Source of the DNA: Mytilisepta virgata
Lineage: Eukaryota > Mollusca > Bivalvia > Mytilida > Mytilidae
Assembly (NCBI GenBank): GCA_028015205.1
Contig: CM051517.1
Location: 11,890,501 to 11,954,500, forward strand
DNA: 64,000 bases
Reading direction: 5' to 3'
The translations under genes and the position numbers were made by a program. Of this stretch, positions 10,890 through 59,000 are shown piece after piece (position 1 is the first letter of the stretch; each line of letters starts with the position of its first letter). The notes below the pieces were generated by a model. The model was not told the DNA's origin. It did not search any database and worked only from the letters and a program-made list of their open reading frames with translations.

Positions 10890-13800
10890 TTAGTGTTTGC
10901 ATATGAAAACAGGAACATCAGAATGATGTAAAATATAGTCACTGACACTTCCCACGATTGTTCTACGAATCTGCCCTAGTCCACGACAACCAGTAACAAT
11001 AAGATCAGCATGGCGCTGTACGGCTGTCTGTACTATTCCACTTCCTGGCTCGCCTATAACTCTGACTAATTCAACATCCTCTAGCTGAAATTATTATAAA
11101 TATATATCATGATTTCTGTATAAACTGAAACTGTGAACAGATTGCTTTTAAAAATTTGAAAAAAAATAATTCAAATTATACATTAAACAACAAATAAACA
11201 ACAAATAAGCTTTCTAGGTGACAGCAAACCAAGTTTTCTTTTATCTTTTATTACTGTTAATTGGAGCCGCCCACTACCGTACATTGCCATAACAATGATC
11301 TGATTTTCTTTTTCTGTTGAACTTCGGAAAATGAAGGAAATGTTTGCCTCAGCTTTAGAAAGAGGCAAGATACGCCACTGCATATTGTTTGATGGAATTA
11401 TTTTTCGCTTTTTCGTTCGTTCTCAACAAAAAGGGCAAATATACATAAGGAGCAATCCAAAAAACGTAATCCATTGGACAGACAAACCCTGGAAGATAAA
11501 TGAACAACCACAAGCACAACAAATAAACACAGAAAACTAAACAAAACATGGACAACACTAACCCAGGTGCTCCGTAAAAGTTCCTAAGTGACGACATCAA
11601 CTTATCCCTGATAAAACCCTGGTCAAGAAGCTTTTTTCAGATATTTGATTATATTTATTCATTTTGAACTTACAGCTCAAAAGTTAAGAAACACTGACAT
11701 ATATCTCGTATTGTTAGCTTCAAACTCATAATAGTATTAAAAAAGTTTTTGTAGCCGACGTTTAAACCTTATGACGAAATATATAAAATAAATATTGACC
11801 CCTAATTTCTTGCATTCTGTATGAAATTTATCCAGCAATTCTTTTGCTTTCTTTTCTTCTTCTTTATACTTGTGAGCAATTGAATCAGTTGCTCTGGTCT
11901 CTGGCTCCAACGTCAGAGCTGGAAATGATTTCAAAATAACAAAAATTAATGTTTAAAAACGAATATGTGATGTTAATGTTTTTTCCGAACATTTAGGGAC
12001 GAACATATATGTATATGCATACAAGCATATATATACTCTTTTAATGTATAAATAAATTTTGGAATAAGAAAAGATTTTCCATTTATAAACACTAAATATC
12101 TTAACATCAGTTTTGTTAGTCTAATGGATTGTTGTATATTTCTGAACACTTTCTGAACATAGCAAGTCAACAACAACATACTGATAAAGGTGAGTCTCTA
12201 ACGTCATGACAAGAACTACAATTCCTAACCAGTGAATGTAGAATTAATGGGAGATTATACTAGATCAACACACTAAGCTGAATTTTATGGTGCAAGCCCG
12301 ACGTTTTAAAAGCTCTAAGTCGTGTCATTCTGATGAATATGTACTCCTAATTGTCAGCAAAACAATCGTTTCTCTTAGTTTAAAGTGCATAATGCTTGGA
12401 CGAAAAATGTGCACATTTCTTAATATATATTTTGACCCCAAAAATGTCTTTAATAACATTATTACATATACATAATAGTACTTTCTTCTGTCGTTAATGT
12501 GCTCCAAACTGGTGTACACACTGTATAATAAGAACGTCACCCATGCTGTATACTTGTTGGCGTTAATGATCTACAAGGAATTTTTACTCGATCTATATAC
12601 ATGTACGTACTACTGACTTTAATGTGTTTCCCAAGATCTACGCTTGGGGTCACAAAACTTTGTGTCCAGTTCTATTCTTACCTCTTACGATAACTTGTTT
12701 CCCAAGATCTACACTTGGGGCCACAAAACTTTGTGTCCAGTTCTATTCTTACCTCTAACGATAAAGTGTTTCCCAGGATCTACACTTTGGGCCACAAAAC
12801 CTTTTGTCCAGGTCTATACTTACCACAAACGATAATATGTTTCCCAAGATCTACACTTTGAGCCACAAAAGCCTTGTGTCTAGTTCTATTCTTACCTCTA
12901 ACGATAATGTGTTTCCCAAGATCTACACTTGGGGCCACAGTACTTTGTGTCCAGCTCTATACTTACCACAAACGATAATGTGTTTCCCAAGAACTACACT
13001 TTGGGCCACATCACTTTGTGTCCAGCTCTATACCTACCACTAACGATAATGTGTTTCCTCAAGATCTACAGATTTGAATTATGTCTCCAGGTATTAACCT
13101 GCTACTGACTTTAATGTTTCCCAAGATCTACAAGACCTACAGACTTTTTACAACATTTCTACAATTACTAGAAGGATTAATAGGTTTCTCAGTGTCTGCA
13201 AAGTTGGGTATGGAACCATATCAAAATATCAAAAGATTCAAATTTCTAAATGTATACTAAGGTTAATTCGTTTCTCGAAATCATTAAACCTTCTGAAGTT
13301 CATGTGTTTCTCCGGGACCTATACAATGGACAATTAGGTCCAGATTTATACTTACTACTGAAGTTCATGTACATTTGTATTTCTCCAAGACCTATACAAT
13401 GGACAATTAGATCTATACTTACTACTGAAGTTCACGTGTTTCTCCGGGACCTCTACAATGGACACTTAGGTCTTTGTCTCCAGATTTATACTTACTACTG
13501 AAGTTCATGTACATTTGTATTTCTCCAAGACCTATACAATGGACAATTAGATCTATACTTTCTTCTGAGGTTCATGTGTTTCTCCGAGACCTATACAATG
13601 GACAATTAGATCTATACTTTCTTCTGAAGTTCATGTGTTTCTCCAAGACCTATACAGTGGACAATTAGATCTATACTTTCTTCTGAAGTTCATGTGTTTG
13701 TCCGGACCTATACAGTGGACAATCAGATCTATACTTTCTTCTGAAGTTCATGTGTTTCTCCGAGACCTATACAGTGGACAATTAGATCTATACTTTCTTC

Positions 13801-16800
13801 TGAAGTTCATGTGTTTCTCCGAGACCTATACAGTGGACAATTAGATCTATACTGTCTTCTGAAGTTCATGTGTTTCTCCAAGACCTATACAGTGGACAAT
13901 TAGATCTATACTTTCTTCTGAAGTTCATGTGTTTGTCCGAGACCTATACAATGGACAATTAGGTCCTTGTCTCAGGATTTATACTTACTACTGAAGTTCA
14001 TGTGTTTCTTCGAGACCTATACAGTGGACAATTAGGTCCTTGTCTCAGGATTTATACTTACTACTGAAGTTCATGTGTTTCTTCGAGACCTATACAGTGG
14101 ACAATTAGGTCCTTGTCTCAGGATTTATACTTACTACTGAAGTTCACGTACATTTGTATTTCTCCAAGACCTATATAGTGGATAATTAGATCTATACTTT
14201 CTTCTGAAGTTCATGCGTTTCTCCGAGACCTATACAGTGGACAATTAGATCTATACTGTCTACTGAAGTTAATGTGTTTCTTCGGGACCTATACAATGGA
14301 CAATTGGGTCTTTGTCTCCAGATGTATACTTACTACTGAAGTTCACGTACATTTGTATTCCTCCAAGACCTATAGAGGGAATAATTAGATCTATACTTTC
14401 TTCTGAAGTTCATGTGTTTCTCCGAGACCTATACAGTGGACAATTAGGTCCTTGTCTCAGGATTTATACTTACTACTGAAGTTCATGTGTTTCTCCGAGA
14501 CCTATACAGTGGACAATTAGATCTATACTTTCTTCTGAAGTTCATGTGTTTCTCCGAGACCTATACAGTGGACAATTAGGTCCTTGTCTCAGGAATTATA
14601 CTTACTACTGAAGTTCATGTGTTTCTTCGAGACCTATACAGTGGACAATTAGATCTATACTTTCTTCTGAAGTTCATGTGTTTCTCCGGGACCTATACAA
14701 TGGACAATTAGGTCTTTGTCTCCAGATTTATACTTACTACTGAAGTTCACGTACATTTGTATTTCTCCAAGACCTATACAGTGGACAATTAGATCTATAC
14801 TTTCTTCTGAAGTTCATGTGTTTCTCCGAGACCTATACAGTGGACAATTAGATCTATACTTTCTTCTGAAGTTAATATGTTTCTCCGGGACCTATACAAT
14901 GGACAATTAGGTCTTTGTCTCCAGATTTATACTTACTACTGAAGTTCACGTACATTTGTATTTCTCCAAGACCTATAGAGTGGACAATTAGATCTATACT
15001 TTCTTCTGAAGTTCATGTGTTTCTTCGGGACCTATACAATGGACAATTAGGTCCTTGTTTCAGGATTTATACTTACTACTGAAGTTCATGTGTTTCTCCG
15101 AGACCTATACAGTGGACAATTAGATCTATACTGTCTTCTGAAGTTCACGTATTTCTCCAAGATCTATACAGTGGACAATTAGATCTATACTTTCTTCTGA
15201 AGTTCATGTGTTTGTCCGGACCTATATAGTGGACAATCAGATCTATACTTTCTTCTGAAGTTCATGTGTTTCTCCGAGACCTATACAGTGGACAATCAGA
15301 TCTATACTTTCTTCTGAAGTTCATGTGTTTCTCCGAGACCTATACAGTGGACAATTAGATCTATACTTTCTTCTGAAGTTAATGTGTTTCTCCGGGACCT
15401 ATACAGTGGACAATTAGGTCCTTGTCTCAGGATTTATACTTACTACTGAAGTTCATGTGTTTCTTCGAGACCTATACAGTGGACAATTAGGTCCTTGTCT
15501 CAGGATTTATACTTACTACTGAAGTTCACGTACATTTGTATTTCTCCAAGACCTATACAGTGGACAATTAGATCTATACTTTCTTCTGAAGTTCATGTGT
15601 TTCTCCGAGACCTATACAGTGGACAATCAGATCTATACTTTCTTCTGAAGTTCATGTGTTTCTCCGAGACCTATACAGTGGACAATCAGATCTATACTTT
15701 CTTCTGAAGTTCATGTGTTTGTCCGGACCTATACAGTGGACAATCAGATCTATACTTTCTTCTGAAGTTCATGTGTTTCTCCGAGACCTATACAGTGGAC
15801 AATCAGATCTATACTTTCTTCTGAAGTTCATGTGTTTCTCCGAGAGATATACAGTGGACAATCAGATCTATACTTTCTTCTGAAGTTCATGTGTTTCTCC
15901 GAGAGATATACAGTGGACAATCAGATCTATACTTTCTTCTGAAGTTCATGTGTTTGTCCGGACCTATACAATGGACAATTAGATCTATACTTTCTTCTGA
16001 AGTTCATGTGTTTCTCTGAGACCTATACAGTGGACAATTAGGTCCTTGTCTCAGGATTTATACTTACTACTGAAGTTCACGTACATTTGTATTTCTCCAA
16101 GACCTATACAGTGGACAATTAGATCTATACTGTCTTCTGAAGTTCATGTGTTTCTCCGAGACCTATACAGTGGACAATTAGATCTATACTTTCTTCTGAA
16201 GTTCATGTGTTTCTCCGAGACCTATACAGTGGACAATCAGATCTATACTTTCTTCTGAAGTTCATGTGTTTGTCCGGACCTATACAATGGACAATTAGAT
16301 CTATACTTTCTTCTGAAGTTCACGTGTTTCTCCAAGATCTATACAGTGGACAATTAGATCTATTCTTTCTTCTGAAGTTCATGTGTTTCTCCGAGACCTA
16401 TACAGTGGACAATTAAATCTATACTTTCTTCTGAAGTTCATGTGTTTTTCCGAGACCTATACAGTGGACAATTAGATCTATACTTTCTTCTGAAGTTCAC
16501 GTGTTTCTCCAAGATCTATACAGTGGACAATTAGATCTATTCTTTCTTCTGAAGTTCATGTGTTTCTCCGAGACGTATACAGTGGACAATTAGATCTATT
16601 CTTTCTTCTGAAGCTCATGTGTTTCTCCGGGACCTATACAGTGGACAATTAGGTCTTTGTCTCTAGATTTATACTTACTACTGAAGTTCATGTACATTTG
16701 TATTTCTCCAAGACCTATAGAGTGGACAATTAGATCTATACTGTCTTCTGAAGTTCATGTGTTTCTCCGAGACCTATACAGTGGACAATTAGATCTATAC

Positions 16801-19800
16801 TTTCTTCTGAAGTTCATGTGTTTCTCCGAGACCTATACAGTGGACAATTAGGTCTTTGTCTCAGGAATTATACTTACTACTGAAGTTCATGTGTTTCTCC
16901 GAGACCTATACAGTGGACAATTAGGTCCTTGTCTCAGGAATTATACTTACTACTGAAGTTCATGTGTTTCTCCAAGATCTATACAGTGGACAATTAGGTC
17001 CTTGTTTCAGGATTTATACTTACTACTGAAGTTCATGTGTTTCTCTGAGACCTATACAGTGGACAATTAGATCTATACTTTCTTCTGAAGTTCATGTGTT
17101 TCTCCAAGATCTATACAGTGGACAATTAGGTCCTTGTTTCAGGATTTATACTTACTACTGAAGTTCATGTGTTTCTCCGAGACCTATACAGTGGACAATT
17201 AGATCTATACTTTCTTCTGAAGTTCATGTGTTTCTCCGAGACCTATACAGTGGACAATTAGGTCTTTGTCTCAGGAATTATACTTACTACTGAAGTTCAT
17301 GTGTTTCTCCGAGACCTATACAGTGGACAATTAGGTCCTTGTCTCAGGAATTATACTTACTACTGAAGTTCATGTGTTTCTCCAAGATCTATACAGTGGA
17401 CAATTAGGTCCTTGTTTCAGGATTTATACTTACTACTGAAGTTCATGTGTTTCTCTGAGACCTATACAGTGGACAATTAGATCTATACTTTCTTCTGAAG
17501 TTCATGTGTTTCTCCAAGATCTATACAGTGGACAATTAGGTCCTTGTTTCAGGATTTATACTTACTACTGAAGTTCATGTGTTTCTCCGAGACCTATACA
17601 GTGGACAATTAGATCTATACTTTCTTCTGAAGTTCATGTGTTTCTCCGAGACCTATACAGTGGACAATCAGATCTATACTTTCTTCTGAAGTTCATGTGT
17701 TTGTCCGGACCTATACAATGGACAATTAGATCTATACTTTCTTCTGAAGTTCACGTGTTTCTCCAAGATCTATACAGTGGACAATTAGATCTATTCTTTC
17801 TTCTGAAGTTCATGTGTTTCTCCGAGACCTATACAGTGGACAATTAAATCTATACTTTCTTCTGAAGTTCATGTGTTTCTCCGAGACCTATACAGTGGAC
17901 AATTAGATTTATACTTTCTTCTGAAGTTCATGTGTTTGTCCGGACCTATACAATGGACAATTAGATCTATACTTTCTTCTGAAGTTCACGTGTTTCTCCA
18001 AGATCTATACAGTGGACAATTAGATCTATTCTTTCTTCTGAAGTTCATGTGTTTCTCCGAGACGTATACAGTGGACAATTAGATCTATTCTTTCTTCTGA
18101 AGCTCATGTGTTTCTCCGGGACCTATACAGTGGACAATTAGGTCTTTGTCTCTAGATTTATACTTACTACTGAAGTTCATGTACATTTGTATTTCTCCAA
18201 GACCTATAGAGTGGACAATTAGATCTATACTGTCTTCTGAAGTTCATGTGTTTCTCCAAGACCTATACAGTGGACAATTAGATCTATACTTTCTTCTGAA
18301 GTTCATGTGTTTCTCTGAGACCTATACAATGGACAATTAGATCTATACTGTCTTCTGAAGTTCATGTGTTTCTCCAAGACCTATACAGTGGACAATTAGA
18401 TCTATACTTTCTTCTGAAGTTCATGTGTTTCTCCAAGACCTATACAGTGGACAATCAGATCTATACTTTCTTCTGAAGTTCATGTGTTTCTCCGAGACCT
18501 ATACAGTGGACAATTAGATCTATACTTTCTTCTGAAGTTCATGTGTTTCTCCAAGACCTATACAATGGACAATTAGATCTATACTTTCTTCTGAAGTTCA
18601 CGTGTTTCTCCAAGATCTATACAGTGGACAATTAGATCTATACTTTCTTCTGAAGTTCATGTGTTTCTCCAAGACCTATACAATGGACAATTAGATCTAT
18701 ACTTTCTTCTGAAGTTCACTTGTTTCTCCAAGATCTATACAGTGGACAATTAGGTCCTTGTTTCAGGATTTATACTTACTACTGAAGTTCATGTGTTTCC
18801 CGAAATCTACACAGTGGGCCAATAGAACTCTATCTCCAGTTTTGTAAACATTGTCTTTGTACCCTGTAATATTTAAAGGTTTTTAGCGAATGGTTACCCC
18901 GGATGGTTACTAATTGTATACGTCTTATTGCTGACCTTTGCTATATGTCACCGGATGTTTGATTTTTTATTCTTATTATTCACTGATTATATTAAATTAT
19001 TTTCGTATTCATTTAGTTGTTTGCATATTCATTCATTACATGCAATGTCCATGTGATCCGTTTTCATCATATTCATCATGACAAGACTGAGGACGTTTTC
19101 TTGTACGTCGCCAATGCATTTTACAAGCATGTTTCGCATGCACAATTTTAACCGCGAAATTTTGATAGCTATATATACAAAACTACATCCATTCTGTAAT
19201 GCATATTTCGACGAATTGCGACTCAGCAGTGCTCAAGGTCGAAATTGTTGAAAGCCGAAACATTAACCAAACTAGAGAACAGGGCGGAAATTTAACTTTT
19301 ATACAATACCTATTTCATTGAAAAATTCTACAACCAAAATAAAAGTACATCGAAAAGAACTCTCAAACCTAAACTAATTGAAAACCATAATTTCCGTTTA
19401 AATAAACCTTAAATATAAGCTGAATTATTAAAACACTGCCAACCTGCAACAAAGGATAGGAAAATTCACAAAATCCTTATTTGGGTTTGAGAGTTCTTTT
19501 AGATGTTTTTATGCGACATTTTATCCCGGTTTTGCTTTTAAAATTCAGTTCCTAATTCGATTGTCTGTAGTTCTAAAGGTATAAATGTGGGCATTACTGA
19601 AAAGTATCATATTCCGTCGTATAATTAGTTATTCATATATTAACGTTTTAGTTTTAAATAGGTTAATTTCTACATTTAATGTTTTGCGCCTGTCTATGTG
19701 TGTTTGAATTAATTCATATTTTTTGGTGTATTGTATATGTTAAATAATTCTTTGTTGCAGTCTTTTATCTATATTGGCCAAATTCTGACTGTCGGGTTAA

Positions 19801-25498: not shown

Positions 25499-28400
25499 TC
25501 AATCTCTACATATAAAAACAGGCACGTCAGAATGGTGCAGTAAATAATTGCTAACACTCCCCAGTAATGTCCTCCTAACTGTTCCTAGTCCACGGCATCC
25601 GGTAACTATAAGGTCAGCAAAACGTTGCTTTGATGCTTGAACAATGCCATGACCTGGTTCCCCTATAACTGTTACTAGCTCTATATTCTGAAGCTAAAAA
25701 TAGATTTGATCCTGTTAGTTTACACCGATATATCAATTAATCAAAGCCACCACAACAGACGGAACCCCGGACAAGAAATAACATAAAAGAGCACAAAACA
25801 CAAACATAAACAAAGCAGAGAGTCTGGATAGTCTGACTTGGTACAGACATATTAACCTAGTATACATAATATTGATAGAATGAATCAGTTCAAAGTTTTG
25901 AAGAAATCTTTTTTTAATATTGTCATATAACCATCTAATTTCGTTTTGTAGATGCAGCATTGGTGATCTCGTGCTCGCCTTTTGTGTGGGAGGTCTTTGG
26001 TCCGCTCAGTGGCTAAGCACGAGGCATTAAGGGGTCGGAGCAAAGACTGTTCGAATACGAGTCTGAAAAATGTGTCTTTCTGCGGGCGGTAACGAGTGAT
26101 AATGTCTTTTGAAAACACGATTCATAGTGTCGGTTTGGTACTAAACATTCGTTCTGTATATGCATGCAATAATTGACATTGCTAAAAAATCAATCAATTT
26201 CGGTATAAGAAATTGTGCAATTTCAAGCACCTTCGTAAACTACTTGATTAGATTCACACAGTGTATCTCCCACTCTTATTACAATAGAAAAAAATATTTA
26301 CACCTAGTTTGGTACATTCAGCATGGTACTTGTCTAGTAAATCCTTTCCTTTCTTCTCTGCGTCATCGAATGCTTTTATTACCGTATCAGGTCCGTGGTG
26401 AGCGGGAACCATTGAAACAGCTGAAAATAAACATTTCTTTTTATTGTTAAAAAATCGGTTTCTGGTCTTGTTATTTACGTTTTTGTCGATGAATTTGTAT
26501 TTGTAATACTCTCATTTCCAATAAAAATAATATCTGAAACAAAAGAGTGTTCCAAATGAAACAAGCATATAATGCGCATAGATATCAATTATATATATAT
26601 TTATATATCTTGCTGCTAGATATGAATTTGAACTCAATCTTGAAAACCTTACTAATACTTAGTGTTCTGATTGCGGTTAGTTTCTCGTGTATCCCTCGTA
26701 CGAATCTCTCCTAATTATTTTGTTTTCCATTCATTTGCTGAATACAAAGAAAAGAAAAGCTAGTTACTTACCTCCGAAATGCAAATGTTTTTCTAGATCC
26801 ACACAATGGGCCAATAATACTTTGTCATCATCTTTATACACATTGTCTTTAAACCCTTAAAATAAGTAATAATACAATTATTTGATCGAGATTCACTGCC
26901 CAAGAGTTGGACACAATGGCAGATGGTAGTGAAATTTAAAGAAACAAAAAGTTTGTGAACGTCCCAAGTGTTCCAGGTTCATCTGTGTTATAATTATGTA
27001 GTAGTATGTATGACTTTAGTGTGGAATTGAAGATAATTGCATGGAACATGCAACAGTTTTCCATTCAAATATAGTCCTGTTGGCCATGTCATCACAAGAG
27101 ACTTAAATATCATAGAAAATGAGTCTTTTCGTGATGTCTGTGCAAAAGTTCCTAAGTATCGGGAACCACGATCCATAAATTGGAAATATAATTTCAAACT
27201 ACTGATGAATTCTGTGGAGGACTATGCCAATCATCGATGGGTCTTATCGTCATTTGGTATTTCCATCAAAGATGATGATTGTCATCTACCTACCTTGTAC
27301 TGGAAACCCAAGTTACATAAGTGTCCATACAAACAACGTTTTAAAGCGGGATCTGCCAAGTGTTCCACCAAACCATTGTCTCAACTTCTAACTTCTATTT
27401 TAACAGCTGTCAAAACGGGCCTCCAAAGTAATTGTGAGACAAGCTATTCAAGAAGTGGTATCAATCAAATGTGGAAATTAAAGAACTCCAAAGACTTAAA
27501 GGATATTTTACGACCTTGGTTCATTTCAGTCTGTAACAGCATAAAAACATTTGATTTCTCTACCCTCTATACCACCATTCCTCATTCACTGAAGGAGAAG
27601 TTGAAAGATCTAACCCATCGATGCTTTCAAAATAAAAATAGCAATACCTTGTCAATGGTAGAGATAAATCATACTTTGTTAAAAACCAGTCTAAATCTAA
27701 CAAAAAATATACAGAGGACGAAATTGTACGGATGATTGAATTTTTGATCAATTTAGTGGACGTGTTTTCCAACAGAAAATTGGCATTCCTATGGGTACGA
27801 ATTGTGCGCCACTCCTGGTCGACTTGTTCCTTTACTCATATGAGGCAGACTTCCTTGACGGGCTTCTTAAGGAAAAACAGAGGCAGTTAGCCCATACCTT
27901 TAATTTCAGCTTCGGCTACACAGATGATGTTTTATCACTCAACAATTCACGTTTTGGGAATTTCTTACATCATCTATTCCAATGACCTCGAAATTAAGGA
28001 TACCACAGGCACTGCCAAGTCTGCATCTTATATTGACCTTCACGTCGAAATTGACACCAGAGGAAGGTTGAATACAAAACTTTACGACAAACGGGATGGC
28101 TTTGAATTTCTAATCGTCAACTTCCCGGCGTATGGAATATATATTTCACAACTCATAAGTTATTCCAGAGCTTGTGACATATACAATGACTTCCTGGACA
28201 GAGCCCGGCTCCTGACAGAAAAGTTGCACAGACAGGGGTATGTTGCTCCTAAGTTGGAGTCATCCTTATTAAAGTTTTATGGACGTCATCATGACTTGGT
28301 TGACAGGTATGAAAAAAAAATATTCCCAAATGAAAATGGACCTGTTCCATTGATGGTATCCCTTCCTCATACCGGATTTGACATGGGCAGCATGGAGGGT

Positions 28401-28853
28401 GACCTGCAGGAAGCAGAGACTGCTTACTCTTCCGGAGCACCTGAGTCTACCTCCGGTTTTTTTGGTGGGGTCCATGTTGTTCATATGTTTTTAGTTTTTA
28501 ATTGTAATGCATGTATTGTTTTGGTCTTGCCTTCATTGTTCTCCGGAGTTTGTTAGTTGTTTCGATTTTCCCCTCCTTTGAATATCCCTTTGGTATTTCT
28601 TGACTTTACTTACAAATATCAATTGAAAGCGCTTCCTATAAAGGTATCACCTGTTCCCCATCCGTGTCAGAATAAAAAATAGTAGTGTTTAACGTTCATT
28701 ATTCCTCTATGGCAGCGTTACAAGGGTGATTTTTTTTAATTTAAACTTACATTTAAGTGCATAATCTGAATGCTGACTTCCGTCTACAGCTATCAGGCAT
28801 ATTCTTTGTTGTTTTTCCTGTTGTACCACGTTTTCTTCCTCGATGGCTGACAT
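25499..28853 (-). CDS. Universal stress protein gene D (complete, 4 exons)
   Basis: Exons, in order of transcription: 28853-28751, 26855-26772, 26420-26302 and 25693-25499 (TGA). The product is 166 aa, slightly longer than B and C because of an N-terminal extension ([16 protein letters not shown]). Motifs: [18 protein letters not shown] in exon 1, KVLLAHCVD in exon 2, [17 protein letters not shown] in exon 3, and [18 protein letters not shown] then [16 protein letters not shown] in exon 4. The G-X2-G-X9-G-S signature falls at residues 134, 137, 147 and 148. Junctions are GT/AG with the same phases as B and C. Intron 1 carries a decayed Penelope-like element on the opposite strand. The exon 4 acceptor could also be read six bases downstream. 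I chose the upstream AG because it gives the same 195-bp exon as the paralogues. Confidence 0.87.
25960..26155 (+). mobile_element. SINE-like element, family 2, copy 2, in intron 3 of USP gene D
   Basis: GGGGTCGGAGCAAAGACTGT and GAGTCTGAAAAATGTGTCTT align with the body of the copy at 22885-23150. The 5' part is diverged. It lies antisense to gene D. Confidence 0.5.
27040..28610 (+). pseudogene. Degenerate Penelope-like element in intron 1 of USP gene D
   Basis: The plus-strand reading frame is broken into pieces at 27037-27735, 27791-27985 and 27924-28556. Residues recognisable as reverse transcriptase include [32 protein letters not shown] (palm motif A), [20 protein letters not shown] (motif B region) and [12 protein letters not shown] (catalytic YTDD). 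They are followed by [12 protein letters not shown] and a C-terminal [17 protein letters not shown] segment. At least two frameshifts and internal stops separate the parts. No GIY-YIG endonuclease is recognisable downstream. The order and wording of these motifs fit Penelope-like elements of bivalves, but I could not confirm the clade. The element is antisense to its host gene. Confidence 0.75.
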
Positions 28854-31429: not shown

Positions 31430-34330
31430 TTTCCAGCTGTTGTCATCTTGTCTTGTTCTAAACTAGAAATAAACTGCTCCTCTGCCAGTTTGGACCATCG
31501 TGTGAAATGGTCCAAACTGGCAGAGGAGCAGTTTATTTCTAGTTTAGAACATGTGAAAACAGATGAAATTGCTACTAAAGTTTATGATTGTAACGAGAAA
31601 ATTCAAAAGCAAACTGTTAAAAATAGCCCAATTTTAGATGCATCATTAGAAGTAAATGAAATAGTTAATTCTTTTTCTGAATTAATTAAAACTGCAGCTT
31701 TTGGCAATTGCACCACAGTAAAAACCAGAGGTCATTTAAATAAGAAGAAGAAGCCCAATAAAATCTGGCATGATAGTGAATGTAATATCAAACTGAGACA
31801 TGTCAAAAGTCTTGGTAGAAATCTTACTAAGTCCCCATGGAATATACAATTGCGCCAAAAAGTACATTTTGAGAAAAAGCAATACAATCGTTTGATAAGG
31901 AAAAAATATAGAGCTTACAAGTCCAAGGTTTTTAATTCTATGATTGAAGTGTCAGAAAAAAATCCAATTTTTGGAAATTAGTTAACTCCCTTAAGGAGAA
32001 GAAAGATGACCCAAGCAACAATATATCGTCAAATGTTTGGTCTATATATTTTAAAGATTTAATGAATAAAAATTATTCAACTGGCTACTCTGCCAGTGAA
32101 GTAAAGGAGTGTTTGTATCATAATAATGAGGTATTGAATAGTGATATCTCAGCTGAGGAATTATTAAAAGCAGTTAAGTTTTTAAAGAATAACAAATCAC
32201 CAGGCTCTGATTGTATTAGCAATGAGATGATCAAGGCATCTTCATATGTGCTGCTAAATATGTATGTTGATATCTTTAATTTGATTCTTAAAACAGGTAT
32301 ATATCCATCATTATGGAGGGAAAATTTGATAAAACCTATATTTAAAGGTGGTGATATGAATGACCCCTCTTGTTACAGGGGCATTGCTTTGTCAAGTTGT
32401 ATGAGTAAATTATTTACTAGAATTTTATTTAATAGACTTGAAGCTTTTCTTGAAAATAATGATATTATTTGCCCTGAGCAAAAAGGTTTTAGAAAAGGCA
32501 TGAGAACAAGTGATCACATTTTTATACTTAAATCACTTATAGACAAATACTTTAATAAAAAGAAATACATTTATGCATGTTTTATTGATTTAAAAAAGGC
32601 ATTTGATACAGTCAATCGAAATGCTTTATTATATAAACTTTTTCAATTAAATATTCGAGGTAGTTTTTTCAATATACTAGAAAGTATGTACAAACAGGTC
32701 TCATTTTGTGTTACTCTACCAGATGGTCTAACAAACAAGTTTGACACAAACATTGGTGTCAAGCAAGGATGCATTTTAAGACCTACATTATTTTCCTTAT
32801 ATATAAATGATGTAGCCAGTCATTTTAATGCTGGCTGTGCACCTCCCTCATTGAATGACAATCCTATACCTTGTCTGCTTTATGCTGATGATATGGTTTT
32901 ACTGTCTGAGTCGTCAAACGGTTTACAAAAATCTCTTGATATTTTAAAATCATATTGTAATAAATGGAATTTGGAGGTGAATATTGACAAAACTAAAATA
33001 ATCATATTTAATAAATCTGGGAGGATCATAAAAGGTTTTTCCTTCTTTTATGATAATCAATCTTTAAGTATTGTTAATGAGTACAAATACCTTGGTTTAA
33101 TTTTGAAACCTTCTGGTTCCTTTACAGAAGCTATTAATCATTTGTCAAAAAAAGGCTGGAAAAGCAATGTTTTGTATTCGAAAAGCTCCCTTCTCTGATA
33201 AGGGTAATATTTTATTGCATTTGAAATTATTCGACTCTTGTGTGAAACCTATTTTGTTATATTGTAGTGAATTATGGGCTTTGCCCCAACTATTGAAAGG
33301 TAGAAATATTATTGATTTTGAATCAAATTATGACAGATTTATTCCCAATAAAATTCAAATTAAATTCTGTAAATATGTACTCAAAGTACATAAATCTGCA
33401 TCAAACTTGGCAGTATTGGGTGATTTGGGACTATTTCCTTTGTCTGTTAATGCACTCAAAAATAGTGCTGAATATTGGCTTCATATTTTGAAGGCCAATG
33501 AAAGCAATTTGATTTCAAAGGCCTATAAGGCCAATTTAGAAATCAGGGATAGTTTAATAAATAAACTTAAAACTTTTTTAAATTTGATTGGATTTGGACA
33601 TGTTTGGGAAAACCAGGGAACGTTTTCCAAACAAAGAACCTTAAAGGCAATTTTAAGTAAACTCCAGGACAGATATTCTAACTATTGGCATAAAATGTTG
33701 TTTAATGATAACAGAGCTATTGGGGAAATAAGCTTAGAACTTATCGAAAATTCAAAAATGTGTTTCAAAGGGAATTATATTTATATACAGATATTGACAA
33801 AAAGGTCCTATCGAATTACATTAGAATCCGAATTAGTAACTCAAATTTGAATATTGAGAAAGGTCGATATTTAAATCTGCCTGTAGAACAAAGGATCTGT
33901 CAACTGTGTGAGGAAGGTATTGAAGACGAAGTTCATTTCATTATGAAATGTAATAAATTAAATATTGAACGAAAATTATTGAAATAGTACCTTCTTTTGC
34001 AAACATGTCTAAAGAAGATCAGTTTAATTTTATATTCACAAGTCATGATTTAGATGTATGCAAAGTTGTTATTTCTGGTGTAAGTAATATGTATAATTCT
34101 AACCAGAAAATGAAACAGAATGTTTGAATGTCATTATAAGTCTAATATTCAAAGAAGGATAACTCTATCTTGTTTGTCGTCCTCAGCTGGGATATCACTG
34201 CAGAGTACAAGATGCTAATGTAAATATTCTTTGTATTTGTTTTGCATTCACTGTTTGTTTGTGTGAATATTGATGATAGATCATTGTTTGGTCTTTATTT
34301 CAATAAATATTTACTTACTTACTTACTCTT
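31430..34330 (+). mobile_element. 5'-truncated non-LTR retrotransposon (LINE) with (TTAC)n tail
   Basis: Coding remnant in four frame segments: 31512-31970, 32000-33150, 33155-33755 and 33760-33987. RT motifs are GVKQGCILRPTLF (motif B, with R where S is usual), FIDLKKAFDTV (A) and YADDMVLLS (C). Upstream comes the linker KIWHDSECN and NKSPGSDCISNEMIK. The C-terminal part has LFDSCVKPILLYCSELWAL and a CCHC-like ICQLC...DEVHFIMKC knuckle. The endonuclease domain is missing, so the copy is 5'-truncated. The element ends in TTCAATAAATATT followed by (TTAC)n near 34325. The three frame breaks all sit in homopolymers: T-run 31968-31972, A-runs 33147-33153 and 33754-33758. A hairpin marks the 5' edge. 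The clade (CR1-, Nimb- or I-like) was not resolved. Confidence 0.88.
31454..31551. repeat. Perfect 45-bp inverted repeat with 8-bp loop at the LINE 5' edge
   Basis: The left arm 31454-31498 is the exact reverse complement of the right arm 31507-31551. The loop is CGTGTGAA. The right arm is the LINE coding strand (KWSKLAEEQFISS), so the left arm is an inverted copy of the first 45 bp of the truncated element. Confidence 0.93.
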
Positions 34331-49500: not shown

Positions 49501-50588
49501 TTTTTTAAAACATATTACATGATCAGCTAAAAGAATAAATATACAAATATAATTGAACCATTGTTTACAACTGTACCTTAAAAAATTTATGGTGACATGT
49601 ATGTAACATTTATTGTCTGGTTATTGACCTGGATAGCATAGAGGAGTAAAATGAACAGTAAAAAATTTACCGAACAAAATACAAAAAAAAAGAACAAAAA
49701 AAAAATGAAAATTGGCCCATTTTACATTTTAAAATTAGCTAACTTTAAGCATTGTATCAATTTTTTTTAATTGCGATATTTGCAAGAAATTATTATAAAT
49801 TAATGTCCATTAAGCACGTGTGATGATAAACCGTAACAATCAGCAATACATGTAAAGAAATACACTTAATAAACTTATCTGTTGCAAAGTTAATATTGAA
49901 ATTATAAGGGTTTCTAATCGTACAAATATTTTATAAATGATCACGAAACATTTTTACTATCAAATTCAATATTTTCCTTTTTTTTATTAGTATTGTGGAG
50001 TATTCACTGCAAATTAAATCAACATAAACTTTAATAAGTTTTGATTAAGGAATAATAAATGTTAATATTATTTATTTCATGAAAAATAAGAATTGAAAAT
50101 GTTTGTATAGAAAATAATATCAAATTTAAACTCAAAGTAGAAAATTATTTCAGAGATCGAATTTGTGGAAAAACTAGACCGAAAAAAAACATTGCCTCAG
50201 GTCAGATTAAGGTCCGTTACATGTCACAACATTTGTTGTTAAGAATGGGGCGTGGCCTGGATTGGTCAATCAAATGACCGGTGGCTACTCAAATGAAATT
50301 CTATTATTAAGTAATTAAAAAATTGAAAAGAACATGTAAAAGTCAATTGAAATAGTAAAAAGTTGAAAGTTAACCAACTGACCAATCAGAATGATCCTGA
50401 CCTGTGTTGATTCTCCATAAAGCATCCCGATCCAAATATTTTTACAGAAGCGAAAGTTTAACTTATACAAACAACTTTACTTGCATTTAACAGTGATTTA
50501 AATTTTTAAAATATATTTGGACTTTTGGAAAAATATTGAATTTACGCATTGAAATTGTTGTTCCAAACGTTTCTTCAGAATCTACAGA
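37560..50588. other. 13 kb non-coding stretch upstream of the forkhead gene
   Basis: No coding sequence, RT remnant or tandem array can be supported here, in contrast to the rest of the window. Small items are an (AAC)n run near 45425, a GATGATGAT run near 39210, poly-C tracts near 43850 and 44030, and a repeat scrap containing CTGACTTGGGACA near 49110. Open frames in this span are all under 95 codons and have no recognisable motif. Its position suggests regulatory DNA of the forkhead gene, but that is inference. Confidence 0.5.
43618..43885. repeat. Segment flanked by inverted TTTTTAGG with G/C homopolymers
   Basis: The left edge TTTTTAGGGGGGGGCTA (about 43621) and the right edge TAGCCCCCCCC...CCTAAAAA (about 43850-43878) form an inverted pair around about 230 bp. 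The long C-run (about 18) is prone to length error. It could be a small foldback element. Confidence 0.45.
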
Positions 50589-51590
50589 ATGGTCATGGAA
50601 AATTTACACAGAAAGTTCGATTTAAGCGAAGAAAATCCAGCATGTATGTTGTCAGATTCCAGTTTTCTACAGTCAACCTCACGCCCAGAAATTCCAGATG
50701 GAAGCTGTGATACAAGTTCAGAAGATTTATACCAGCAAAAGAACGAATCTTCTGCATTGAACTCGTCAGATTCTGAAGACGATGAAAATGCTGTCAACTA
50801 TTCCGGAACCTCAACATTGTCGCAGCATAAACGACGATTTGCCGATGTCAAACCACCGTATTCATATATTGCCTTAATTACTATGGCGATAGAAAGTTCG
50901 TCTTCTGGAATGATGACATTGAACGAAATTTACAGCTTCATCATGAACCGATTTCCTTATTTTAAAGAAAACCAACAAAGATGGCAAAATTCAATCAGAC
51001 ATAATCTATCATTGAATGACTGTTTCTTGAAGATTCCCCGTGCTCCAGGACGCCCGGGCAAAGGAAACTATTGGGCTTTACACCCCGGATGTGGCGATAT
51101 GTTCGGTAATGGAAGTTTCTTAAGAAGAGCCAAAAGATTTAAGCTGAAAAGGCAACAGCAGGAAGAACAGGCACATGTTCAACATGTAAGTTCATATGGA
51201 CATTTTAATCTTTACGGAGGACCACCATCAGGATACAAACCTTATTCTCTTCCGACCCTTTCATCATTCCCACAAGGGCTGCACCAAACCCAGCAATATG
51301 GACTTCCACCAAAAACAGAAGCATGGAATTCTCCATCGACATCTGCTTACTCGTCTTATTATAATCCGGGAAGTTTCAGCAATTCTTTTGGATCTTCGTT
51401 CGGATCATCTCTAACAGGTTCATTAGGAGGATCGTATTTGCCCGGAACAAACGTTCATTCTGTACCGCCATCAAACCCTGGCTTATCAAGTGGTTTTACG
51501 AACAATTTGCCGAATTACTCATCATTACAACAAACGCCATATTGTGCACCACAGTATCCTGGACAACTGAGACTACAAGCAACTCAATGA
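50589..51590 (+). CDS. Forkhead-box transcription factor, FoxAB-like (single exon, 333 aa)
   Basis: This is an intronless frame of 333 codons with a good start context (AGAATGG). A second in-frame ATG lies two codons later. The forkhead domain spans about residues 88-186. It opens [20 protein letters not shown], has the recognition-helix segment [20 protein letters not shown] at 131-150, and ends in the wing-2 region [14 protein letters not shown]. The N-terminus is acidic and serine-rich ([14 protein letters not shown], 54-67). The C-terminus is rich in S, G, Y and P, typical of activation tails. [11 protein letters not shown] and DCFLK are FoxA-like, while [12 protein letters not shown] and NGSFLRR are FoxB-like, so the FoxAB class is the best fit. 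FoxE or FoxB cannot be excluded without a tree. It is a nuclear sequence-specific DNA-binding protein. No other gene shares its strand nearby, and a 13 kb gene-free stretch lies upstream. Confidence 0.93.
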
Positions 51591-53030: not shown

Positions 53031-56000
53031 CTACAGTTCCTCTTTTGATAATGTATCTAGATTCTCGTCTTTTATGATATTATCCGTCCTATCTTCTGGT
53101 AATTCCTTCGCTTTTGTTTTGAGGAAAGTGACATCATCATCCATTTCGAGAACGGTTGGCTCTTTATTATAGTAACTATTCAGGACAGGTTCCTCTCTGC
53201 CGACTTGAAATATCGTTTCAAGGTTTGGTATTGTTTGAAACATTTCAGCATAATCACAAACATGGAATTCGTACATAGTCAAAATATCATTCTTATCTCT
53301 GTCGATGAAGTTGAAAATCTGCAATTTAAGAACAAGAAAATTACTAACACGAAAACCTGACAAACTGAAATATATATTCATGATGGATCCATAAACATGA
53401 TTTATTGAAATTTATATTATTTGTGGCTCGTAGTAAGAAAACAATGATAAAATTAAATAAATAAATAAAACTTGGTGATCTAAATAATTCAATTGTTCCA
53501 TTATCATATGAATTATTGTTTTACATAGAACGGTAAATTATTTCATGCATTTTAATGACATTAATCATAAGATACGGTCTAAATTAATATGGACAATTTA
53601 TGGAATGAAAGTTGGTAGATCACGTTTTTATGGGCAAACAATTTATTTAATACTTATACCGCAACAAGCTTCTCATCTTGTGTATCTTCTGAAGAATATT
53701 TTCGGATACCAATTAAAAAGTCTTTTTTACTGACTTCCATGAGTTCGTCGAATGCATCCAAAAACATTTCCCTGAAATTATAAGAAAAACCGTAATCAAG
53801 TTATTTCTGAAAATAAATTTAAAGTAAACCATAAAACACTTATCTAAAACAAAATCAAGAAATATCTCCCTCATCCCACAGCTCTGCCCATAGTCCTTAA
53901 TGTTCTTTTGAGTATGAATCTCTCTGTTATACATTTTTTTTATATTGTTTTGGCTTTTATAATTATTGAATCTGAATACAAGGCATACTTTGTTGGAATG
54001 TTCATGTAGTGTGTGCACAGGGTGCATCTTCAAATATTTACAAACTGTTAAGTTTTACTGAGCTTGTATGTTACATTTAAGTTAATTTTTCCGGGTTCAA
54101 TCGAACAAACAGTGCAGAAGAATGCTACCTACCTAATTTCATTTTCTTCCGTCATTTCTTCTTCCATTAACGTTATATGCCTGAGTGATTTTGGTGCTAG
54201 AGTACCATCTAAGGGTTGGCAATCTGTTTTATTAAACCATCGTAAGTGATGTGACCAAACATTCACTGCCAAGTTACGTCCAGAATGAGAATATACATGA
54301 TGGTACCAGCTAAAAATGTAAAAAAAAATCATTTTTGTAGATTTTTTTTGTAAAGCGTTTTATATGAAGCTTCAGAAAATTTGAGAATAAATATGTTAAC
54401 AACAGTAAATATGTATAGGACTAGAATTTTTTTTTTCTATAAACATTCTAATTTATACCTGATATATGGTAAATGTATACAAGTCAGTTTAGTATTGTAC
54501 TGTGTTAATAATGTTCTTTTCCTAATAATGTAGAGCAGGGGCACATCTGAATGATAAAAAAATTGTCTTCCGCAAGTCTCCTGATAACTATATTACAGCA
54601 TGATAAGGAGGAGGAAATTTGATCATACATGTCATTTTGATTGTTTGATTGATTATTTACTATTTATTAACGAGATTTATATTGCTCCTTAGGTATATTT
54701 GTACTCTTTATATCATTTCAGGTTTTTGACAGGGCGTTGGTAGGTTATACATACTGATATGGGATAAACAAACAGTCTCCTTTTGTCATATTAACCAGAT
54801 ACCACGGAAGTCCCTGTAATTTCGGATATTTCTTCATGTCAACGGCTTCAACATCAACCATACTGTAAGCACCTTGATGCACAAAATGATCTCCTTCTAT
54901 TTCTTGTTTGTATTTCTGAGAACAAGCAAAAATAATATGGTTAACATGGAAATCTTTTTTTATATGAGCCCACCACATTTTTAAAATGCGCCAGTCCCAA
55001 ATTACGAGCCTTTGTCAGTGTTTTTTTATGTTCCAGTCTCAATTTATGAGCCTTTGTCAGTGTTTTATGTAACACTCCCGGGATATGACTTTTTCGTGTT
55101 TCTATTTGCCAGTCACAAGTCATGAGCATTTGTCAGTATTTTAATTTGCCATTCCCAACCTATGAGCCTTTGTCAGAGTGTTTATGTGCCAGTCCTAACC
55201 AAGAGTCTTTGTCAGTAGGTACATTTTTTCTTTATGTTGTTTATATCTTTTGAGGTATAGTTTTTTTTTTTTAGATATTTGTAGTTCAAGTTGAATTTCT
55301 TCACAACTCTATATTAACATATATCACGTAAATTGATTCTAAAATGTCTACTTGATCCAAATAATTAATCAGATTCAAAGTTCCCGTTCAATAAGTTTCT
55401 TCCCAAGTTGAACAACTACACTTTTATATAATTTCCGTTCCTCTCTACCTTCGAAAGGCGCTTGTGTCCAAAGCAATCATTTTTTTTCTCAAACTGTTAC
55501 ATAATCAAAAGTGATCATAAACCGTTATGGTTATTCCTACCTTATCAAACATAATCAAGTCTTTGTTACCATATAATAAACAATTTATGTTGTCTATCAG
55601 TGTTTATGGTTAATACTTTTCTTATCAGATACAATTAAGTCTTTGTTAGTTTCTGTTCCGTCTTATTCTTTTTTGGTTAGTTTATTATGTTTTTTCATTC
55701 CTGATGCATGCATCATTGTGGAGTTTGTTGTGTTCCATTCTCATGATTTTGTCTTTTCATTGGATTTCGAATTAACGGACTTTTCCTACTGTTTTGTCGC
55801 TTCGTTATTCTTTTGCCAATATTTACCACCTAACAAACAATTTATATCCTCTATAACTGTTTTAATGGTAATACCTATACCTGATCAGTTAATGGTAATA
55901 AATTATCAATCAAGTTTTATAATCATCTACTGTTAATGGTAATACCTACATGTACCTTATCAATCACGTTTTATTACCATCTACCAGAGGTTATGTTGTC

Positions 56001-59000
56001 TATAACTGTTAATGGTAATACCTACCTTATCAGTTAATGGTACCTACTTGTACCTTATCAATCAAGTTTTATTATCATCTAACAGGGGTTATGTTGTCTA
56101 TAACTGTTAATGGACAAACCTACCTTATCAGTTAATGGTAATGCCTACATGTACCTTATCAATCAAGTTTTATTACCATCCAATAGAGGTTATGTTGTCT
56201 ATAACTGTTAATGGTAATACCTACCTTATCAGTTAATGGTACCTACTTGTACCTTATCAATCAAGTTTTATTATCATCTAACAGGGGTTATGTTGTCTAT
56301 AACTGTTAATGGACAAACCTACCTTATCAGTTAATGGTAATGCCTACATGTACCTTATCAATCAAGTTTTATTACCATCCAATAGAGGTTATGTTGTCTA
56401 TAACTGTTAATGGACAAGCCTACCTTATCAGTTAATGATAATACCTACATGTGCCTTATCAATCAAGTTTTATTACCATCCAATAGAGGTTATGTTGTCT
56501 ATAACTGTTAATGGACAAGCCTACCTTATCAGTTAATGATAATACCTACATGTACCTTATCAATCAAGTTTTATTATCATCTAACAGGGGTTATGTTGTC
56601 TATAACTGTTAATGGACAAACCTACCTTATCAGTTAATGGTAATGCCTACATGTACCTTATCAATCAAGTTTTATTACCATCCAATAGAGGTTATGTTGT
56701 CTATAACTGTTAATGGTAATACCTACATGTACCTTATCAATCACGTTTTATTACCATCTACCAGAGGTTATGTTGTCTATAACTGTTAATGGTAATACCT
56801 ACCTTATCAGTAAATGGTACCTACATGTACCTTATCAAACAAGTTTTATTACCATCTAACAGAGGTTATGTTGTCTATAACTGTTAATGGCAATATCTAC
56901 CTTATCAGTTAATGGTAATGCCTACATGTACCTTATCATTCAAGTTTTATTACCATCTAACAGGGGTTATGTTGTCTATAACTGTTAATGGACAAACCTA
57001 CCTTATCAGTTAATGATAATACCTACATGTACCTTATCAATCAAGTTTTATTACCATCCAATAGAGGTTATGTTGTCTATAACTGTTAATGGTAATACCT
57101 ACATGTACCTTATCAATCACGTTTTATTACCATCTAACAGGGGTTATGTTGTCTATAACTGTTAATGGACAAACCTACCTTATCAGTTAATGATAATACC
57201 TACATGTACCATATCATTCAAGTTTTATTACCATCTAACAGAGGTTATGTTGTCTATAACTGTTAATGGTAATAATTATACCTTATCAGTTAATGATAAT
57301 ACCTACATGTACCTTATTAATCAAGTTTTATTATCATCTAACAGAGGTTATGTTGTCTATAACTGTTAATGGTAATACCTACCTTATCAAACATAATCAA
57401 GTCTTTGTTTCCATCTAATAAACAATTTATATTGTCTAGTCCATCATTGTGGAGAACAGATTTCGTACCACCACTGCTAAACCACATGATCACAGAAGTT
57501 ATAGATCTCTGCAAACCACCACACTGTAGAGATATGGGTATAGTTATGTCGTCTGAAAAAGACACAAACTCGGAAAAAACCTCGATTATTCATTTACCAT
57601 CATCGTTGTGATTAAACTATCCCTTTAAAAGAAGTATTGAAATTGTGTTAATTTTTGTTTTGAACGATTTTTTAAAATTTCTACACCATTTTAGAAATTA
57701 TAATATTATCATCGAATAATAGTTTTACTTACCTCTCATTTCATTTGCGACATCGTATACCATGTATACATTCGATTCGTTATATATCTCGAGAAACTTT
57801 GACATGGGCATCATATAAGCTTTAGCCTGACGATTCTCTTTTTTCCCACCTTCAACATCCACATAAATTTTTCCGTATTTTTGACTGAAAGAAAGACAGT
57901 ATACATCCGTCACATCTGATTCCATGTTTGTGCCAGTGACAAAAATAGTCCTTAGTTCTACGGTAAGTTTATTGTACAAATGTCCACTAATAGCCTTCAG
58001 TTTTACAATATGTTTTTTAATACAAAGCACAATTACATTAGTGATATAAGCATACACCATACATCATAGAGTAAAGAAGAACATGTCAGGATGACACTAA
58101 AGTCTCGCCCTCAAAATAGTTGACCGGAGTGGATTAGTCATTTAACTGAATAACTGAAAATAAGCAAAAGTCAGCAACTTTACATTTCCTATGGTCAATG
58201 AACCGTGAAGCCTAGGTCAAAACCATAAAAAGGCGTGAATTTTAGAAAGTTCATATCATAATGTACTTGAGGTGGGACGGATAGACAGACGAACGGACGC
58301 ACAGACCAAAACCTATATATCCCCCAACTTTAATTGTCGAAACATAAAAAGTGATTCAAGAAAATGCCCAAAATGTCTTAAAGGGGTATAGTTATCATTC
58401 ACTTAGAATCCTGAAATTGGGGCATTTTGACAATGACCAAATTACAAATTTCACATACTTCTGATTAAAAGACGGTCTAAAATTAAGTAATTTTACCCTT
58501 GTGCTTTATATTTTAAATAGGATACTTGAAAAAAGGTAAACAGAAAGTGGGAAAAATAAAATGGAAAAACTACACTATAAAACATACGGGGAACTATATT
58601 TGTGAACAGGAAAACTAATTGATGAGCATTAATTGTGGTCTTGGATCTGATTAACGAATTTTATAGGTTTCCAACAAATTTTACCACTTAAGTTCAGAAT
58701 TGAATGAAACACGCAGATTTTTCTAATAGTTATATATACGGAATTGTATACATTCAGAGCATGTGCATACATCTATAAAAAATATAATATGAAAAATACG
58801 TACTCTAAATATTTATCCGTCCATAATTTGTATGCTGGAAATTGCCCCTTTTCCAGAACACCTTTCACCAGGAATGGTTTGCTTTTTTCTAAATAGTTTT
58901 CGTAAAACTCTATCGGAGATGGAAAGTCTTTCAAAATAGTAATTCCACCAGTTGGCTTTCTGTGGTGTCCCAGTGGCTTTAGGTGTCCAGATAATTCTTC

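What the first reader, a model, noticed from the sequence alone, without database searches (positions are those of the whole stretch)
55541..57552. A second, independent exon/donor-seeded intronic array in the JmjC gene
The ~100-bp array in intron 3 of an unrelated gene is also a copy series of the 3' end of the exon just upstream (exon 3), and most units keep the donor GATAAG|GTAGGTATTACC. It abuts the exon exactly as in USP gene C. Two unrelated genes in one 64 kb window showing the same architecture argues for a recurrent process, such as replication slippage or break repair nucleated at exon/donor junctions, perhaps linked to transcription or R-loops. I know of no named class of exon-donor satellites.
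Basis: partly seen in the sequence, partly recalled or inferred. Interest (0 to 1): 0.88.

Follow-up and report, generated by a model that had tools for sequence, protein, structure and literature searches.

The report
Exon-end tandem repeats inside an intron
The end of one exon and its splice-donor site has been copied over and over into the next intron of a JmjC-type gene, the same kind of repeat that amphioxus workers call a "mirage", and several other genes of this animal carry independent ones.

Summary
In a minus-strand JmjC/Cupin_8 gene the last 55 nt of exon 3, its donor and 24 nt of intron are unit 0 of a tandem array at 55520-57437 (15 full derived units of 76-103 bp, then a truncated, an interrupted and an exon-like distal unit). 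The exon part alone matches the intron far above chance (97; 1000 shuffles at most 34). A colinear contig, read as the other haplotype, has 4 such units instead of 15. Homology and array-free USP paralogues point to exon first, array second. The class has a name: amphioxus "mirages" (PMC3087553, passages). It recurs here in two USP paralogues, kinesin-1-, kinesin-2- and ENPP-like exons, perhaps VPS8. Genome-wide, tandem triples of donor AGGTAAGT outnumber those of the reversed motif (992:282; 830:140, overlapping sets); listed arrays are about 2.5 times denser (p 0.011; same-span count 12:5, p 0.07). But in a kinesin survey donor-side copies (3 of 36 exons) were hardly commoner than copies at random positions (61 of 900). 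So: real, recurrent, a known kind; most likely ordinary minisatellite birth across a donor, tolerated because the first donor stays intact. A donor-specific hotspot is not excluded.

The parts
57383..57552 (-). Exon 3 of the JmjC/Cupin_8 gene (170 nt); ends ...LLDGNKDLIMFDK|
   Evidence: ORF and splice signals; Cupin_8 E 2.5e-14 (hand-joined exons 3+4); JMJD5 1.2e-10 (hand-joined exons 2-4)
57359..57437 (-). Unit 0 of the array: last 55 nt of exon 3, donor, first 24 nt of intron 3
57371..57388 (-). Authentic donor GATAAG|GTAGGTATTACC (exon ends at 57383)
   Evidence: for counts of the string
55926..57358 (-). 15 full derived units of 76-103 bp, most with two donor-like GATAAG|GT sites
   Evidence: TRF; unit listing; alignment; donor counts
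55596..55925 (-). A truncated derived unit, then an exon-like unit split by an insert of about 177 bp
   Evidence: unit listing; insert length; blastn matches at 55585-55647 and 55823-55853
55520..55595 (-). Distal unit, in the window the intronic copy nearest to the exon unit (86.8% over aligned bases); groups with the exon units
57733..57883 (-). Exon 2 of the same gene (3' part; donor AG|GTAAGT); no copies of it in the next intron
54754..54915 (-). Exon 4 of the same gene (3' end approximate); no copies at its ends
   Evidence: one search match; acceptor CAG|AAATAC
18780..18863 (-). Exon (2, numbering assumed) of USP gene C, whose 3' end seeds the second array
12620..18779 (-). USP gene C array: units of exon end plus donor (13290-18779, mainly 59, 73 and 81 bp) and diverged 71-bp units (12620-13070); by string counts 25 keep TTCAGTAGTAAGT and 60 carry forms without the GT

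Best explanation
A mirage-type intronic minisatellite. A small tandem duplication, about 79 bp, crossed the exon 3/intron 3 junction (shown by unit phase: exon AGACAA... to intron ...GTTAT). Because the 5'-most copy keeps the complete exon and donor, the mRNA need not change, so the duplication was tolerated (inferred). A few exon-like copies formed; a middle one mutated, gained an internal donor-module duplication (76 to 101 bp) and was amplified and homogenised, while the outer units stayed exon-like (read from the unit alignment and tree). Copy number now differs between the two copies of the locus read as haplotypes (15 against 4 full derived units), as expected of slippage or unequal exchange. 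The intronic donor copies are decoys: read-through from the real donor meets a stop after 14 codons, so their use would give truncated, decay-prone transcripts (inferred). The same accident has happened independently in other genes of this genome.
For: Exon-only similarity far above shuffles. Unit 0 is the exon. Outer units group with the exon units, support 0.994, apart from the inner ones. 15 against 4 units on a contig colinear with the window over its whole length (units). The unit occurs only at this locus and its C81 counterpart: 21 of 21 matches. Direction exon to array: JMJD5 alignment, array-free USP paralogues. Exon-only scores beat all 300 shuffles in 12 of 13 cases tried: clearly in USP C, USP upstream paralogue, kinesin-1 (L054), kinesin-2-like (L059), kinesin L032, ENPP-like (L071), L061, L063, L067, L069; narrowly in JmjC (intron cut at 1.8 kb) and L058; homology for L032, L054, L059, L071. 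Published precedent with the same haplotype difference and unhomogenised ends.
Against: No RNA data, so use of the first donor is not shown. That C81 is the other haplotype and not a recent duplicate is inferred from colinearity. Enrichment of donor arrays over a reversed motif is more than chance placement predicts unless intragenic DNA is generally richer in arrays; this was not separated.
Confidence: 0.8

Rival explanations
1. Exon/donor junctions are a mutational hotspot: co-transcriptional structure (R-loop, nicking, stalled splicing or replication) makes tandem duplications start there more often than elsewhere in genes.
For: Donor octamer triples 992 against 282 reversed and 830 against 140 for longer spacing; the two sets share arrays and many hits come from a few big ones. 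Distinct arrays counted in the listed places: 12 in about 111 Mb against 27 in at least 620 Mb for the reversed motif, ratio about 2.5, p 0.011 (some contig lengths are lower bounds). On C1+C2 9 donor arrays against 2 for an acceptor octamer, p 0.03 at equal exposure. USP cluster: 2 of 4 donors, 0 of 4 acceptors.
Against: Kinesin survey: 3 donor-side hits (one weak) and 1 acceptor-side hit among 39 exon tests, 36 distinct, against 61 of 900 random positions in the same loci at the same threshold: no clear local excess. In the same span the array count is 12 against 5, p 0.07. Six of the 12 donor arrays showed no exon. Selection could make the donor/acceptor difference.
Confidence: 0.25
2. Functional multi-donor array, as in human IFI6: the extra donors are used and give regulated isoforms or poison transcripts that tune JmjC expression.
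For: 28 of 31 donor-like sites found by a fixed list have GT; IFI6 is reported to use repeat units as donors (passage).
Against: Read-through hits a stop 14 codons past the donor. Copy number varies 15 to 4. In USP C 60 of 85 string-counted units lack the GT, as expected of drift.
Confidence: 0.12
3. The array is older and exon 3 recruited its end from it.
For: Array and exon are similar, which alone has no direction.
Against: Exon-end residues lie inside the JMJD5 alignment; a paralogue (L018) codes the same protein region with no tandem repeat reported in the 3.1 kb held.
Confidence: 0.03
4. Chance similarity or assembly artefact.
For: Arrays are error-prone to assemble.
Against: Shuffle and tile controls; two contigs with different copy numbers; other loci.
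Confidence: 0.02

Closest known systems
Amphioxus 'mirage' minisatellites (Adh3, globins BflGb6 and BflGb9; PMC3087553, abstract part and passages seen; the naming paper is cited there and was not read)
   Same: [quoted passage not shown] many but not all units with splice signals; haplotypes differ in unit number (6 and 3 in BflGb6); cluster ends escape homogenisation; unit sizes 10-160 bp.
   Different: Another animal genome and other genes; here larger arrays (15 full units; USP C over 5 kb) and in the cases found mostly at donors, whereas BflGb6 duplicates an acceptor-side boundary (BflGb9 a donor-side one); splicing not tested here.
IFI6 (6-16) minisatellite giving several splice donors (reference title and one citing passage in PMC4526556; original not held)
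   Same: Repeat units at an exon end carry donors.
   Different: There downstream units are reported as used donors; here use is unknown and the read-through soon meets a stop.
Human internal tandem repeats at exon-intron boundaries in segmental duplications (PMC2812944, passages)
   Same: Minisatellite expansion at exon-intron boundaries can alter splicing.
   Different: Recent primate paralogues, with transcript support.
Introner elements (recalled, no call)
   Same: Repeated sequence with splice signals in introns.
   Different: Introners are dispersed whole introns; this unit was found only at its own locus.

Membership tests
Mirage (exon/intron-boundary minisatellite) | Tandem units span an exon/intron boundary, the genuine exon being one unit | tested here: met
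Mirage (exon/intron-boundary minisatellite) | Unit number differs between haplotypes | tested here: met
   15 against 4 full derived units; C81 taken as haplotype from colinearity
Mirage (exon/intron-boundary minisatellite) | Inner units homogenised, cluster ends not | tested here: met
Mirage (exon/intron-boundary minisatellite) | Many but not all units hold splice signals | tested here: met
   28 of 31 donor-like sites with GT, sites chosen by a fixed list
Mirage (exon/intron-boundary minisatellite) | Regular splicing not disturbed | not testable with these tools
   no RNA data
Mirage (exon/intron-boundary minisatellite) | Somatic length instability (Adh3) | not testable with these tools
   needs reads from single tissues
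IFI6-type multi-donor minisatellite | Downstream units used as donors | not testable with these tools
   no RNA data; stop 14 codons after the donor
Introner element | Dispersed copies at unrelated loci | tested here: not met
   21 of 21 genome matches lie at this locus or its C81 counterpart (that search skips very common words)
Donor hotspot class | More arrays at donors than at matched intronic positions | tested here: inconclusive
   enriched over a reversed motif, not clearly over random positions of the same loci

The most novel reading that the evidence does not exclude
In this genome 5' splice-site junctions are true hotspots for minisatellite birth, so donor-anchored exon-end satellites form a genome-wide class of the order of a hundred arrays or more (about 110 if 12 arrays in 111 Mb for one donor octamer and one unit range are scaled up, of which perhaps half start at exons; other donor forms would add), linked to transcription or splicing and a standing source of new donors, intron growth and intron sliding.
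Probability: 0.25. Interest if true: 0.8.

Novelty: new member of a known kind. Interest (0 to 1): 0.55.

Why it matters
It extends the amphioxus mirage to another animal genome, with several genes, two contig copies of at least three array loci, and a simple donor-motif test that can be run on any genome. If donors really seed such arrays more than the rest of an intron, splicing or transcription would be shaping mutation; if not, this is a clean case of what selection tolerates at donors. Either way the arrays put many donor-like sites into one intron, a natural test of donor choice.

Tried and rejected
One search tested donor and acceptor sides of 30 kinesin loci without turning minus-strand matches; its sides are wrong for those and one search replaces it (L060 moves from donor to acceptor side). 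L060 is an array at an acceptor with only about 4 exon bases in the unit, so not an exon-end copy. L058 is weak on exon bases alone (27, shuffle maximum 24) and L068 is not above shuffles (26 against 28); both are left out of the list of firm cases. Six of 12 donor-motif arrays (L062, L064, L065, L066, L070, L072) showed no exon in the stretch read by eye, so donor-motif arrays are not all exon-derived. L061, L063, L067 and L069 are called exons from reading frame and splice signals only; of these only L061 had any Pfam row, far below cut-off. The reversed-motif arrays were not read, so exon contact has no matched control. The VPS8 case rests on units printed: 23 residues give Pfam VPS8 E 6e-05, 22.6 bits, under the family's cut-off of 28.9; one search found no firm PDB match. 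The acceptor triple count (797 against 480) is dominated by a few large satellites, among them one at the start of C3. A 62-bp array in L030 with GTAGGTAC looked like a further case but no exon was seen beside it. Literature: searches that named bivalve, mollusc or mussel were no paper; 15 of 36 papers listed; 12 of 1,881 listed; no listed row is about exon-junction arrays in a mollusc, nor are those; most subscription journals are not in that library. The earthworm metallothionein paper (PMC12783039, passages) has intronic minisatellites but no stated exon copy in the passages seen. No attempt was made to name the organism; a bivalve is a guess from recall.
Full report
What is there. The window (G000:C10:11890501-11954500, a 1.03 Gb assembly of 109 contigs) holds a minus-strand gene whose hand-joined exons 3+4 match Pfam Cupin_8 (E 2.5e-14) and, with exon 2, JMJD5 (1.2e-10). 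Exon 3 is 57383-57552 and ends GATAAG|GTAGGTATTACC. The last 55 nt of the exon, the donor and 24 nt of intron (57359-57437) are unit 0 of a tandem array. Fifteen full derived units of 76, 98, 101 or 103 bp follow to 55926, then a truncated unit, then an exon-like unit split by about 177 bp of other sequence, then a distal unit at 55520-55595. TRF gives a period near 101.

More than chance. blastn finds the distal copy at 91% over 78 bp, E 1.7e-25. With only the last 56 exon bases as query the intron scores 97; 54 comparisons with other tiles of the window reach 33 and 1000 dinucleotide shuffles reach 34; a 5' part of the exon scores 19. Limited to the first 1.8 kb of intron, which leaves out the distal unit, an exon-only query scores 34 against a maximum of 29 in 300 shuffles: the inner units have drifted from the exon. 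Exons 2 and 4 of the same gene show nothing of the kind at either end (20-23), nor does the acceptor of exon 3 (24).

Donors. Units mostly carry two donor-like sites, GTACAT and GTAGGT forms, consistent with an internal duplication that turned 76-bp into 101-bp units. Of 31 intronic sites found with a fixed list of six 7-letter forms, 28 have GT. Read-through from the genuine donor gives VGITINSYRQHNLC and a stop. In USP C 25 string-counted units keep TTCAGTAGTAAGT and 60 carry forms without the GT.

Two copies of the locus. Contig C81 is colinear with the window over its whole length, in blocks mostly 91-97% identical, lower (83-90%) in a few, which I read as the other haplotype. There the JmjC array has 4 full derived units instead of 15, the USP C array is also shorter (about 28.2-32.5 kb of the joined piece, against 12.6-18.8 kb of the window), and the upstream USP array has 2.1 against 3.9 units. 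The exon units and distal units of both contigs group together (0.994) apart from the inner units.

Direction. The exon-end residues lie inside the alignment with JMJD5. A paralogue at C9 (L018) codes the same region, appears to end its exon a few codons further on, and has no tandem repeat reported in the 3.1 kb held. A pattern search found four USP paralogues with the same exon in and beside the window: donor-side scores are 119 and 98 in two (units 59 and 54 bp, different breakpoints) and 20 in the other two; acceptor sides 18-21 in all four; C81 agrees. So the exon came first and arrays arose more than once.

Elsewhere in the genome. Of 39 kinesin exon tests (36 without three allelic repeats) three donor sides (47, 56, 65) and one acceptor side (98) score 32 or more; antisense controls reach 27. 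Of 900 random positions in the same loci 61 score 32 or more and 42 score 47 or more, so 3 of 36 is no clear excess. One of the three (L058) is weak on exon bases. Beside the tested exons, and so found after the fact, L054 shows a kinesin-1 exon ending ...EAELKAWRSG (8tt7, 4.2e-16) run straight into 40-bp units (16.3 copies by TRF) of its own last bases plus GTAAGTAAATTATAGTC; its C23 counterpart L055 has 15.3. L059 is a kinesin-2-like exon ending VPYRDSKLTRLLQ (KIF3B 4.4e-19). Exon-only tests: 12 of 13 cases beat all 300 shuffles, ten clearly (USP C, USP upstream, L054, L059, L032, L071, L061, L069, L067, L063), JmjC and L058 narrowly; L068 fails.

Whole-genome motif test. Three AGGTAAGT with gaps of 20-50 bases: 992 hits against 282 for the reversed motif; gaps 51-81: 830 against 140 (partly the same arrays). 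The octamers are equally frequent singly in held sequence (7 and 7; 10 and 10). Hits pile up in big arrays, so I counted arrays by eye from the first listed places (about 100 per search, not all hits): donor 12 up to C3:32.6 Mb, reversed 5 in the same span (p 0.07) and 27 in at least 620 Mb (ratio 2.5, p 0.011; contig lengths partly lower bounds). For an acceptor octamer the listing shows 2 arrays on C1+C2 against 9 for the donor (p 0.03). I read the 5' edges of all 12 donor arrays: L071 starts in an ENPP-like exon (ENPP6 7e-15; Phosphodiest 2.7e-16); L061, L063, L067 and L069 start in open frames with splice signals or a start codon; L068 is doubtful; six show no exon.

What it is. [quoted passage not shown] The features that I could test are met here. 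The likely history is a chance tandem duplication across a donor, harmless because the first copy keeps exon and donor, then ordinary minisatellite turnover. Whether donors are favoured as starting points is open: the motif enrichment says perhaps, the small random-position control does not show it.

Noticed in passing
L030:9356-9680 (C10 just upstream of the window): A neighbouring USP gene has its own 54-bp exon end plus donor array, 3.9 units here and 2.1 on C81.
   Followed up: yes
L054:2250-3171 and L055: Kinesin-1 exon followed directly by about 16 (L054) or 15 (L055) 40-bp copies of its last bases plus a consensus donor GTAAGT.
   Followed up: partly
L060 (C11:3619271-3619441): A 95-bp array (7.8 copies, 98% matches) abuts a kinesin exon on the acceptor side; units end in TTTGTAG|GTAT with almost no exon sequence.
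   Followed up: partly
L018 (C9:52042812-52042931): A JmjC paralogue seems to end the homologous exon about five codons further downstream, so the intron position would differ by some 15 nt from the window gene (by eye).
   Followed up: no
L017 (C5:6021765-6021986): A JmjC-like copy with one stop reads through this intron position without an intron.
   Followed up: no
55104-55217: A second, different 40-bp tandem repeat (2.9 copies) in the same JmjC intron.
   Followed up: no
C3:4179-16886: Large satellite with 40-bp TTTACAGGTATG units near the very start of the contig, perhaps near a chromosome end.
   Followed up: no
31948-33195 and 27037-28553 (+): Long open frames that look like pieces of retroelement reverse transcriptases (motif YADD recalled, no family search).
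   Followed up: no
50553-51587 (+): Open frame of 345 aa with a forkhead-like stretch ([14 protein letters not shown], recognised from recall, no family search).
   Followed up: no
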